Assembly: GCF_000757825.1 (NCBI RefSeq) | Contig: NZ_CP009451.1 | Span: 1,488,001 to 1,552,000 of the forward strand | Reading direction: 5' to 3' | Source: Cedecea neteri | GTDB lineage: Bacteria; Pseudomonadota; Gammaproteobacteria; Enterobacterales; Enterobacteriaceae | DNA: 64,000 nucleotides | Shown: in pieces, positions 43,532 through 45,884 of the stretch | Layout of the letters: the number at the start of each line of letters is the position of its first letter | How positions within the stretch are numbered: position 1 is the first letter of the stretch | Made by a program: the position numbers and the translations under genes | The notes under the pieces: generated by a model | What the model was told of the DNA's origin: nothing | What the model saw: only the letters and a program-made list of their open reading frames with translations | The model's database searches: none

Positions 43532-43798
43532 ATGAACCGTATTGCTATGTCCGCTATTGCCCTGTCTTTGGTTTCTTTCAGCGCGGCCTCTTTTGCCGCT
43601 GAATTAACCGGACCAAACCTTGAGCGCTGTTTTGGTATTGCCAAATCTGCTGATAACGACTGCAAGGCCGGCGCGGGCACCACCTGCGCAGGGACCTCTA
43701 AGGTCGATTACCAGAAAAATGCCTACAAGATGGTGCCGGCAGGCACCTGCACGTCGATCCAAACGCCAAATGGCCACGGCTCGCTGACCGAAGGTTAA
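43532..43798 (+). CDS. bufA: Bufferin-type RiPP precursor (DUF2282), BufA
   Basis: An 88-residue exported precursor peptide. The signal peptide (about 1-23, ending SFAA) is followed by a cysteine-bearing core with Cys33, 44, 52 and 73 ([37 protein letters not shown]). That spacing is the DUF2282 pattern. In characterised bufferins a DUF692 enzyme turns core cysteines into thiooxazoles and the exported peptide binds copper. GGAG lies upstream. bufB follows after 16 bases. The signal peptide acts in place of a classical leader. Confidence 0.88.
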
Positions 43799-43814
43799 TA
43801 AAAGGGCCACTCAC

Positions 43815-44651
43815 ATGACGATGACAATCAATTTGGGCGCCGGGTTAGGCCTTAAGCCAGAACATTATGCCGATGCCTGGAGCAGCCCGTCGGCCCTTTG
43901 GTACGAGGTTCACAGTGAAAATTATCTCATGGCGGGTGGCCCGCGCAGAGAGTGGCTGGCAGCCATTCGCCAGCAGCATCAGATCTCCCTGCACGGCGTT
44001 TCGCTCTCGTTGGCTGCAGACGAACCGCCGGACGCTCAATTGCTCGCGCAGCTAAGAGCGTTAGTGACCGACATCAAACCCGCGCTCGTTTCAGAGCACC
44101 TCGCCTGGTCGCGCTGGAACGGGGTTTATTACCCCGACCTGCTGCCGGTGCCGAGAACCACCCGGGTACTGAACCGCGTCATAGATAATATCAACCGCGT
44201 GCAGGATGCGCTGGGCCGCCAGATTTCACTGGAAAACCCGACGCATTATTTGCAAATGCCGGAACACGAGTGGGATGAAATCGAATTTCTCGACGAAGTC
44301 AGCCGCCGGAGCGGATGCGGCCTGCTGCTGGATCTGAATAACGTCTGGCTGAGCGCCCACAATCTCGAGTTTGATGCAGTGGCCTGGCTGGACCGCTTCC
44401 CGACCGAACGTATCACCGAGATCCACCTGGCGGGCTTTAGCGCCGACGAAGGCGGCAGTGCTTTGCTGATCGACAGCCACGATCGGTCAGTCTCCGAGGA
44501 TGTCTGGCTGCTGTATAAGCAACTGATTCAGCGAGCGGGAGCAAAACCCACGCTTATCGAACGGGATGACAACCTGCCGTCGTTCGATGAGCTGCTGGCC
44601 GAACAGCAGCGCGCGCAGCACATCATCGACACGCTGGGAACCACCGCATGA
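43815..44651 (+). CDS. bufB: DUF692 multinuclear non-heme iron oxidase (BufB)
   Basis: A 278-residue MNIO (MbnB-like) enzyme, TIM-barrel fold. Metal ligands are visible in [50 protein letters not shown] and DSHDRSV. It is predicted to oxidise cysteines of BufA using iron and oxygen in the cytosol before export. Its stop overlaps the bufC start by 4 bases (ATGA), so the two are translationally coupled, as expected for enzyme and partner. Confidence 0.9.
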
Positions 44652-45394
44652 GTAACACCTTAAGCCGCTATCACGAGGCGTTTATTGGCCTGTTATATGG
44701 TGAGGCTCGATCCGGGCTTAGCCATTTTCAGCACCAGCCAGGCATGGCCGTTTACCGCAACGGCGTGATCAAAGCCTGCGTGGACGCTCTGGAGGCTAAC
44801 TTCCCCAGCGTTTCACGGCTTACCGGCCGCGACTTTTTCCGTGAAATGGCGCGCGGCTACGCGCTTGAACAACCGCCGCGCGGAGGGGAATTAATTCGCT
44901 ACGGCGACGCCTTCCCTGTTTTTATCGCCGCGTATCCACCAGCCCACGAGCTGCCGTATTTAAGCGCGGTAGCGGAGCTGGACAGGCTCTGGCTGGAGGT
45001 GTTTTGCGCTGAGTCTTCGGCCCCGTTGGATGTACATACGCTGGCAAATATTCCTCCGGAGACGTTAGGCACCCGTTCATTACCGCTGCGGGCCAGCGTT
45101 CGCTGGTACTGGCATGCCACGCTGCCGGTGTTCACGCTCTGGGCATTCAACCGCCATCAGACAGCAACGCCGGAGACGATTCACTGGCAGGGGGAAGGCG
45201 CCCTGCTGGTTCGCCGTCAGCAGCAAATTTTTACCGAACCCTTAAGCCAGGGAGGCGCGGTTTTTCTGACCGCCTGCCGCCAGGGAGCAACCCTTGACCA
45301 GGCCAGCGAACAGGCTCTGGCGGCCGAGCCAACCCTCGCCCTCGGCCCCTTTTTCAGCAACCTGCTTAGCAGCGGTATTTTCGCCGCATCTTAA
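44648..45394 (+). CDS. bufC: DUF2063 partner of the MNIO enzyme (BufC)
   Basis: A 248-residue protein. The N-terminal DUF2063 domain ([24 protein letters not shown] region, about 30-110) is the usual partner of DUF692 proteins and is thought to recruit the precursor peptide; the C-terminal half is less conserved ([14 protein letters not shown]). No signal peptide is visible, so it acts in the cytosol with BufB. Gene order A-B-C-DoxX is standard for bufferin operons. Confidence 0.85.
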
Positions 45395-45413
45395 TCACAC
45401 TCTTTGAGGTTAA

Positions 45414-45884
45414 ATGATGAAAGTATCTGAACAAAAAATGACGGAGCAGGGAGTTCACTCGCTGTGGAATAGACTCTGGAGCCGGCTTCAGACAGGCGTC
45501 AGCGATAGCGTGCTGTTACTTGTCGCCCGCGTAGGCATTGCTGCGGTGTTTTTCCTGTCTGGCCGCACCAAAGTAACGGGATTTATGACGCTAAAACCGT
45601 CCACCTACGAGCTGTTCCGCACCGAATACGCGCTGCCGCTCATCCCCTATAACATCGCCGCGCACCTCGCCACGTTTGCCGAGCACACCTTCCCTGTTCT
45701 GCTGGTGCTGGGCCTGTTTTCACGCTTCGCCGCCGCAGGCCTGCTGTTTATGACGCTGGTGATTGAGATTTTTGTCTACCCGGATGCATGGCCTACGCAC
45801 CTGATTTGGGGCGGTTTGCTGCTGCTGATTATCGCCCGCGGCGCAGGCCGCTGGTCACTGGACAGAGTGCTGAAGCTGGCGTGA
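45414..45884 (+). CDS. DoxX-family membrane protein of the bufferin operon
   Basis: A 156-residue inner-membrane protein with four hydrophobic segments, starting with [20 protein letters not shown], the DoxX signature. It ends the bufferin operon, 19 bases after bufC; many bufferin operons carry such a DoxX gene (bufD). Its role is not established. ATG 45417, three bases later, has better spacing to GAGG and is an equal candidate start. Confidence 0.82.

What the first reader, a model, noticed from the sequence alone, without database searches (positions are those of the whole stretch)
43532..45884. Complete bufferin-type copper-binding RiPP operon in an enteric chromosome
A DUF2282 precursor with signal peptide and four spaced cysteines, a DUF692 MNIO enzyme with all visible metal ligands, a DUF2063 partner coupled by a 4-base overlap, and DoxX lie in that order. 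Bufferins are a recently recognised RiPP class in which cysteines become thiooxazoles and the exported peptide buffers copper. In this window the operon sits beside a DUF1471 stress protein and a secreted hydrolase, and no metal regulator is adjacent.
Basis: partly seen in the sequence, partly recalled or inferred. Interest (0 to 1): 0.8.

Follow-up and report, generated by a model that had tools for sequence, protein, structure and literature searches.

The report
Bufferin operon with a remote regulator
A Cedecea chromosome carries a standard four-gene operon for a probable copper-binding modified peptide (a bufferin), and its promoter region carries a DNA signal shared with a sensor-regulator pair that lies half a megabase away here but directly beside the same operon in a sister genus.

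Summary
43532-45884 encodes a four-cysteine DUF2282 precursor with a Sec-like signal peptide, an MNIO maturase above NCBI's BufB equivalog cutoff, a DUF2063 partner that folds like NGO1945, and DoxX. This is a canonical Buf1 bufferin operon, the same order as Caulobacter CC3254-3257 and Cupriavidus gigPABT: a new member of a known kind. Copper binding and thiooxazoles are inferred, not shown. bufA is in 8 of 8 Cedecea genomes and the operon is uncommon in Enterobacteriaceae, whose bufferin maturases are not one clade (p-AU 5e-8). The extra finding concerns regulation. In a sister genus the operon is co-directional with an OmpR/EnvZ-type two-component system, a BhsA-like gene, a hydrolase and a DipZ-like thiol reductase. 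In Cedecea that two-component system and dipZ sit together about 547 kb away. The promoter region of the BhsA-like/hydrolase/bufferin cluster carries a 10-bp-period direct repeat also found before the two-component operon and before dipZ; these are the only three matches to the pattern in this genome. The likely regulator is therefore encoded in trans. That is a prediction at about 0.55, without expression data, from a motif first seen by eye.

The parts
42226..42242 (+). Predicted response-regulator site (TTGTGTTGTTTTGTATC, direct half-sites with 10-bp period) about 155 bp before the DUF1471 start
   Evidence: PWM built without the DUF1471 promoters; best site in 7 of 7 Cedecea orthologs, 1-5 of 1000 shuffles as good; one of only 3 matches to the pattern in the genome
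42379..42639 (+). DUF1471 gene, BhsA-like small envelope protein
   Evidence: PF07338 1.5e-13; best NCBIfam BhsA 66.5 bits, below its cutoff of 90; precedes abH and buf in Cedecea and in the sister genus
42672..43439 (+). Alpha/beta hydrolase with signal-like N-terminus (abH)
   Evidence: PF12697 1.4e-21; copies of 84% identity or more in 4 of 198 Enterobacteriaceae genomes, the same 4 that have this type of buf operon
43449..43470 (+). Conserved TTTAATAAGGAGGAAATAACGC element shortly after the abH stop, about 70 nt before bufA; function unknown
   Evidence: single copy in the genome at up to 3 mismatches; similar element after the dipZ stop in the sister genus
43532..43798 (+). bufA: bufferin precursor, DUF2282, signal-like N-terminus, Cys 33, 44, 52, 73
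   Evidence: PF10048 5.6e-23; mean 98.5% aa identity across 7 Cedecea genomes
43815..44651 (+). bufB: MNIO (DUF692) maturase
   Evidence: PF05114 1.6e-96; NF050167 352 bits, cutoff 310; H60, E94, H95, E140, N141, D173, N176, H204, D220, H222, E249, D251 invariant in the 36 MNIO rows aligned
44648..45394 (+). bufC: DUF2063 partner protein (PME type 1)
   Evidence: PF09836 1.2e-17; model mean pLDDT 90.1; the three Foldseek matches at E<=0.001 are two chains of TglHI holoenzyme entries and NGO1945, 3dee
45414..45884 (+). doxX: DoxX-family membrane protein
   Evidence: PF07681 1.3e-15

Best explanation
This is a Buf1-type bufferin operon. Proposed working: BufA is made with a Sec signal peptide. 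BufC (DUF2063 plus RRE-like domain) presents it to the iron enzyme BufB, which oxidises the two central cysteines (C44, C52) to 5-thiooxazoles. The peptide is exported, C33-C73 form a disulphide, and the product binds excess copper in the periplasm, with DoxX as an accessory membrane protein. Shown here: the genes, their order, their conservation and the partner fold. Inferred from characterised relatives: the chemistry, export and copper binding. Second layer (confidence about 0.55): the operon is transcribed from a promoter before the DUF1471 gene as DUF1471-abH-bufABC-doxX, and is activated by an OmpR-family response regulator and EnvZ-like kinase encoded about 547 kb away next to a DipZ-like thiol reductase. 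BhsA-like protein, DipZ and bufferin would then act together against an envelope copper or thiol stress. The confidence number of this field is for the bufferin identity.
For: Domains and equivalog score; candidate ligand residues invariant in 36 aligned MNIO rows, and alignment over parts of the solved MNIO structures 3bww, 8hci and 7dz9; BufC fold; canonical order as described for Buf1, Caulobacter CC3254-3257 and Cupriavidus gigPABT; full-length open frames in 9 of 9 genomes read. Precursor: mean 98.5% aa identity against 86.0% for BufB and 80.3% for BufC among 7 Cedecea genomes. Regulation: in the sister genus the order is RR-HK-DUF1471-abH-dipZ-bufABC-doxX, all on one strand, in 2 of 2 genomes read. 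8 of 8 Cedecea genomes keep the kinase elsewhere; in 3 of 3 loci read it lies in EH-RR-HK-dipZ. A shared direct repeat precedes the two-component operon, dipZ and the DUF1471-abH-buf cluster.
Against: No biochemical or expression data. DoxX is well below the only NCBIfam model matched (44 bits, cutoff 80) and BufA and BufC have no NCBIfam match. Regulation: the sister-genus DUF1471 site is weak without the position rule (72 and 82 of 1000 shuffles as good); the site before the sister-genus RR is in the opposite orientation; one held-out promoter (G011 DUF6130) has no site; four other places in the 64-kb window score higher with the weight matrix than the DUF1471 site, though they do not match the pattern (all). 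A further match to the pattern, not present in the window's genome, recurs in 5 of 8 Cedecea genomes (one copy read, between LysR-like and cysteine-desulfurase-like frames), so the pattern is not wholly specific to the three promoters. The upstream regions of the 4 other enteric bufA genes examined lack the tandem repeat. No sigma-70-like promoter was found on + before DUF1471 either. The regulator's signal is unknown; its kinase has one cysteine before the catalytic part, in the apparent second membrane helix (by inspection).
Confidence: 0.88

Rival explanations
1. The operon makes a bufferin, but it has its own promoter or is under general stress control (RpoS, CueR or another factor); the two-component system regulates only the neighbouring DUF1471-abH unit or nothing here.
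For: bufA lies 92 bp after abH with a conserved element in between; a CueR ortholog above cutoff is present in the genome; the related Legionella GIG promoter depends partly on RpoS (passages); abH and DUF1471 occur together without buf in G011, which also has the site.
Against: In the scanned stretch no sigma-70-like promoter was found on + (1 site, on -, 1.8 expected), which holds for the DUF1471 promoter too; no unusual structure in the abH-bufA gap (z 0.54); the repeat is kept in 8 of 8 Cedecea genomes; the two-component system is co-directional with buf in the sister genus.
Confidence: 0.35
2. The product mainly handles another soft metal or an oxidant or thiol stress (gold, cadmium, chromate, HOCl-like oxidants) rather than copper.
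For: Caulobacter CC3254-3257 is induced by chromate and cadmium through SigF; gig genes respond to gold and copper; dipZ and DoxX point to thiol redox; E. coli bhsA is induced by HOSCN.
Against: Bufferins are reported to bind copper and help growth under copper stress; the Caulobacter genes were not raised more than twofold by peroxides, paraquat or diamide.
Confidence: 0.2
3. It is a different MNIO pathway (oxazolin/HvfA type or methanobactin type).
For: Weak cross-matches: HvfB family 216.8 bits, MbnB 63.4 bits, HvfX 44.4 bits.
Against: All of these are below their cutoffs (360, 325, 80) whereas BufB is above its own; the precursor has DUF2282 and no EGKCG repeats.
Confidence: 0.03
4. A decaying passenger operon without present function.
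For: BufC is rather variable (mean 80.3% within the genus) and MNIO-PME1 clusters are depleted in Enterobacterales.
Against: Full-length open frames in 7 of 7 Cedecea genomes read and bufA in 8 of 8; the precursor is nearly invariant.
Confidence: 0.04

Closest known systems
Buf1 bufferin operon CC3254-CC3257 of Caulobacter
   Same: Same four domain genes in the same order (passages); Buf1 family with four conserved Cys
   Different: Caulobacter's is controlled by the ECF factor SigF and NrsF; no sigma factor or NrsF among the 8 proteins scanned here, and a two-component regulator is predicted instead
gigPABT of Cupriavidus metallidurans CH34
   Same: Same order; its BufB-like protein is 59% identical and groups with the Cedecea clade
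   Different: Divergent from rpoQ/rsqA sigma and anti-sigma genes (passages); no match to the window's DUF1471 or hydrolase was listed in the 9 kb read
Other Enterobacteriaceae bufferin operons (L014-L018; L019 without a detected precursor)
   Same: DUF2282-MNIO-DUF2063-DoxX order in L014-L018
   Different: BufB only 42-45% identical, not one clade with the Cedecea type (p-AU 5e-8); 4 of 4 upstream regions examined lack the tandem repeat
DsbRS-dsbDEG of Pseudomonas aeruginosa
   Same: A two-component system that answers copper and induces dsb genes (passage); here RR-HK adjoin a DipZ-like protein
   Different: Sequences were not compared; that passage names no bufferin gene

Membership tests
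Buf1 bufferin cluster | DUF2282 precursor with Sec signal peptide and four conserved Cys | tested here: met
   PF10048 5.6e-23; C33, C44, C52, C73; signal peptide judged by eye only
Buf1 bufferin cluster | MNIO maturase of BufB type with metal ligands | tested here: met
   NF050167 352 bits, cutoff 310; candidate ligands invariant in 36 rows
Buf1 bufferin cluster | PME type 1 partner (DUF2063 plus RRE-type domain) | tested here: met
   PF09836; fold match along the model to 3dee (222 columns, TM 0.56/0.67) and to the partner chain of TglHI
Buf1 bufferin cluster | DoxX gene in the core operon (frequent, not universal) | tested here: met
   PF07681 1.3e-15
Buf1 bufferin cluster | Thiooxazoles on the central Cys, outer disulphide | not testable with these tools
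   needs mass spectrometry or NMR
Buf1 bufferin cluster | Periplasmic copper binding and copper protection | not testable with these tools
   needs protein and growth assays
SigF/NrsF-controlled Buf1 subgroup | ECF sigma and NrsF genes next to the cluster | tested here: not met
   none among the 8 proteins scanned in 42367-47633; the rest of the genome was not searched for them
Oxazolin/HvfA (EGKCG) cluster | EGKCG precursor and HvfB/HvfX equivalogs | tested here: not met
   no EGKCG; HvfB 216.8 of 360, HvfX 44.4 of 80
Methanobactin cluster | MbnB equivalog | tested here: not met
   63.4 bits, cutoff 325
DsbRS-like copper two-component regulon | OmpR-type RR and HK next to a DsbD-like gene | tested here: met
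   EH-RR-HK-dipZ in 3 of 3 Cedecea loci read
DsbRS-like copper two-component regulon | Orthology to DsbS and copper sensing | not tested
   no DsbS sequence at hand; signal unknown
BhsA/ComC | NCBIfam BhsA equivalog cutoff | tested here: not met
   66.5 bits, cutoff 90; best match among DUF1471 models, so BhsA-like only

The most novel reading that the evidence does not exclude
In Cedecea and a sister genus, bufferin production is one arm of an uncharacterised OmpR/EnvZ-type envelope regulon (TTGTATC and TGTATC half-sites at 10-bp period) that also makes a BhsA-like envelope protein, a secreted hydrolase and a DipZ-like thiol reductase. This would be two-component, rather than sigma-factor, control of a bufferin, with regulator and target split across the chromosome in Cedecea and united in the sister genus.
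Probability: 0.5. Interest if true: 0.55.

Novelty: new member of a known kind. Interest (0 to 1): 0.4.

Why it matters
Bufferins are a large, recently recognised peptide class. In the papers of which I saw passages, control is described for Caulobacter SigF and is open elsewhere: no promoter was identified for Cupriavidus gig and the Legionella work only infers a regulator of its own with an RpoS influence. The Cedecea operon gives a candidate regulator, a candidate binding site and a candidate co-regulated gene set that gene removals and reporters could test in a fast-growing enteric host. It also shows that bufferin maturases in Enterobacteriaceae do not form one clade, which fits separate acquisitions.

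Tried and rejected
Considered and rejected: oxazolin or methanobactin pathway (below NCBIfam cutoffs); a bufA-bufB gene fusion in betaproteobacterial relatives (seemed so in the ORF list; I put it down to my ORF filter, in which overlapping frames hide bufA, and did not check it further); the palindrome-like CCTTATTTAATAAGG after abH as an operator (its left half is not conserved); a structured RNA leader (z 0.54; no Rfam match there); the four-base overlap as special (present in 9 of 9 genomes read).

Led nowhere: PDB sequence search with BufA and BufC (no meaningful match); literature on Cedecea and copper (74 papers, 8 listed, listing only); the first 'bufferin' word search, whose 20 listed papers concern buffering; a last search on bufferin, copper and Caulobacter (listing only).

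Results that weigh against or blur the regulatory reading: of the 33 pattern matches in 8 Cedecea genomes, 9 lie outside the three promoters; of these 9, one sequence recurs in 5 of 8 genomes and another in 2 of 8, and I read the context of four matches only, so I cannot say that all are chance. Four places in the window outscore the DUF1471 site with the weight matrix.

Limits of the statistics: the motif was first seen by eye in the promoter alignments, which also contained the Cedecea DUF1471 promoter; the weight matrix was then built without the DUF1471 promoters. The pattern was chosen after seeing the three sites, so the genome count shows rarity, not independent discovery. The 480 window tiles include the tiles that hold the site itself. 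The position window was set from the Cedecea site, so its 0 of 5000 for Cedecea is partly circular; the sister-genus (10 of 5000) and G011 (2 of 5000) values are the fairer tests. In one search the script stopped with an error at the last gene (fdoH); the values for the genes before it were printed and are used.

Full report
WHAT IS THERE. The window lies in a 4.88-Mb single-contig genome whose nearest named relatives are Cedecea neteri and other Cedecea, some filed as Enterobacter or Enterobacteriaceae. Pfam assigns DUF2282, MNIO (DUF692), DUF2063 and DoxX, all above gathering cutoffs. NCBIfam's BufB equivalog model matches the MNIO at 352 bits (cutoff 310), while the HvfB, ApyH, MbnB and ChrH models stay below theirs. 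The precursor has four cysteines at 33, 44, 52 and 73. The genome has one MNIO match and one DUF2282 match.

FAMILY MEMBERSHIP. The MNIO aligns with parts of the solved structures 3bww (residues 8-263 in two pieces), 8hci (115-249) and 7dz9 (77-258). H60, E94, H95, E140, N141, D173, N176, H204, D220, H222, E249 and D251, taken as the metal-site set from the family motifs (recalled), are invariant among the 36 MNIO rows aligned. The DUF2063 protein was modelled from a 14-row alignment (mean pLDDT 90.1). Its three Foldseek matches at E <= 0.001 are 8hci_A and 8hi7_A of the TglHI holoenzyme (taken to be TglI, since the DUF692 chain is 8hci_D) and NGO1945, 3dee; NGO1945 is called a typical MNIO partner in PMC12452194 (passage). 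The gene order is the core Buf1 order (PMC12452194, section 14) and equals Caulobacter CC3254-3257 (PMC3511200, passages) and C. metallidurans gigPABT (PMC10304878, passages). In Buf1 the central cysteines are modified and the outer two form a disulphide, which maps here to C44/C52 and C33/C73. The chemistry and copper binding are inferred from these relatives.

DISTRIBUTION AND HISTORY. In a family-level sample, 14 of 198 genomes (own included) have an MNIO match. Comparison of the fetched loci with the window's proteins shows a DUF2282 precursor beside it in nine of the 14, MNIO, DUF2063 and DoxX without a detected precursor in one (G168), and only the MNIO in four. bufA is in 8 of 8 Cedecea genomes and in 2 of 6 genomes of one other genus, g25. 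A DNA search of the E. coli collection (5,426 genomes by its description) gave no match. A published survey calls such clusters depleted in Enterobacterales (PMC12668002, section 6). Enterobacteriaceae bufferin maturases are not one clade: holding the 15 rows together is rejected (p-AU 5.1e-8, 36 rows). The other enteric bufferin maturases group with other genomes of the same class (99/96). This fits separate acquisitions; the direction of transfer was not tested.

CONSERVATION. Among 7 Cedecea genomes the mean pairwise amino-acid identity is 98.5% for BufA, 97.6% for abH, 88.2% for DoxX, 86.0% for BufB and 80.3% for BufC; third-position identities are 0.750, 0.749, 0.705, 0.696 and 0.675. The peptide is more conserved than its own maturases, but no more than the neighbouring hydrolase. 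In 7 of 7 Cedecea and 2 of 2 g25 genomes the four frames are open at full length with the 4-base overlap.

NEIGHBOURHOOD. In Cedecea the order DUF1471-abH-bufABC-doxX follows a formate dehydrogenase operon. In g25 the order is RR-HK-DUF1471-abH-dipZ-bufABC-doxX, all on one strand, in both genomes read. The dipZ product looks like a CcdA/thioredoxin-type fusion (judged from its sequence; ResA subfamily match 57.9 bits, cutoff 170). RR and HK are OmpR- and EnvZ-like, below those equivalog cutoffs. Close abH (84% or more) occurs in 4 of 198 Enterobacteriaceae genomes, the same 4 that have the Cedecea-type operon; the next best is 64%. These are three Cedecea and one g25 genome, so kinship alone could explain part of that. 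A third genus (G099) has RR-HK-abH-dipZ without buf in the 16 kb read and without any MNIO match, so this is a module that buf joined. 8 of 8 Cedecea genomes keep the kinase at 65-66% identity elsewhere; in 3 of 3 loci read it lies in EH-RR-HK-dipZ. In the window's genome that module is at C1:2080762-2085154, about 547 kb from buf.

SHARED SITE. Promoter alignments showed a direct repeat with 10-bp period, TTGTATC-N3-NTGTATC, before EH-RR-HK, before dipZ, and before the DUF6130-led clusters of G099 and G144 (the name DUF6130 is recalled). A weight matrix from those sites alone was tried on held-out promoters. Cedecea DUF1471: score 12.0-13.0, 1-5 of 1000 shuffles as good in each of 7 orthologs; 10 of 480 tiles of the window score as well as the window's own site, and four other places in the window score higher. 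G011 DUF1471 (another genus, no MNIO match): 7 of 1000. g25 RR operon: 0 of 1000, opposite orientation. g25 DUF1471: 72 and 82 of 1000, weak. G011 DUF6130: 952 of 1000, no site. With the position fixed at 148-159 bp before the DUF1471 start, shuffles reach the observed score in 10 of 5000 (g25) and 2 of 5000 (G011) cases. The pattern TTGTNTYNNNNTGTATS occurs three times in the window's genome, at the DUF1471-abH-buf, EH-RR-HK and dipZ promoters, and at all three in 8 of 8 Cedecea genomes (24 of 33 matches in all; 2 matches for the reversed control). Of the other 9 matches one sequence recurs in 5 of 8 genomes and one in 2 of 8. The upstream regions of the four other enteric bufA genes examined, and of the Cupriavidus and Stenotrophomonas copies, lack the tandem repeat.

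MECHANISM PROPOSED. Under envelope copper or thiol stress the kinase activates the regulator, which turns on its own operon, dipZ, and the DUF1471-abH-buf cluster. BufBC modify BufA, which is exported and binds copper; the BhsA-like protein may change outer-membrane copper passage, as described for BhsA/ComC (passages in PMC7558416, and PMC12096828, which differ on how); DipZ may keep thiols reduced. A copper-sensing two-component system that controls dsb genes is described in P. aeruginosa (PMC10141476, passage), which makes the idea plausible but is not a test of orthology. Alternatives are listed separately. In the two survey papers the terms two-component, histidine kinase and response regulator had no occurrence in the main text. 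Searches for DUF2282 or DUF692 with two-component listed 4 and 7 papers; I read passages in three of them, none describing this arrangement, and did not open the others. That is the whole basis for calling the regulatory link new.

VERDICT. The finding is correct and, as a bufferin operon, ordinary for its class: a new member of a known kind in a host order where it is uncommon. The added value is a testable regulator and site.

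Noticed in passing
window 45936-45961 (-), and L002, L003, L004, L006, L011: A solitary type I-F-like CRISPR repeat (Rfam CRISPR-DR4 30.7 bits, below gathering 35) lies about 50 bp after doxX; it is the only exact copy of its 20-base core in the genome. In Cedecea neteri NBRC 105707 the same spot holds an array of 35 repeat matches; Cy-643 has two repeats with one spacer; L003, L006 and L011 have one, and none was found in L005. It may be an eroded or seed array. 'I-F' is recalled, not from a call.
   Followed up: partly
window 43449-43470: TTTAATAAGGAGGAAATAACGC, a ribosome-binding-like AAGGAGG without an ATG, GTG or TTG start codon at normal spacing, shortly after the upstream gene's stop and about 70 nt before bufA; kept in Cedecea and, after dipZ, in the sister genus. 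Possibly an mRNA-stabilising or ribosome standby element.
   Followed up: partly
window 46173-48387 and matching stretches in L081-L086: The stretch between doxX and lldP (LysR, cupin matching (R)-mandelonitrile lyase above cutoff, SDR) is variable: not found in Cy-643 or C. neteri NBRC 105707 (where the CRISPR array follows doxX), and only the cupin found in C. davisae.
   Followed up: no
L078 3878-6239 (CP031732.1) and plasmid hits H2-H4: A complete bufferin operon sits on a 266-kb Stenotrophomonas plasmid typed as conjugative; matches of the same identity lie on three more plasmids (two Pseudomonas, one Stenotrophomonas), so bufferin operons occur on plasmids.
   Followed up: no
L115 8067-10004 (genome G168): MNIO-DUF2063-DoxX without a detected DUF2282 precursor, just after a frame that looks like a type VI secretion TssF start (recalled resemblance).
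   Followed up: no
L157 1501-1517 and equivalents in G199, G192, G201, G202: A further match to the TTGTNTYNNNNTGTATS pattern recurs in 5 of 8 Cedecea genomes, in L157 between a LysR-like frame and a cysteine-desulfurase-like frame (resemblances by eye); it is absent from the window's genome.
   Followed up: partly
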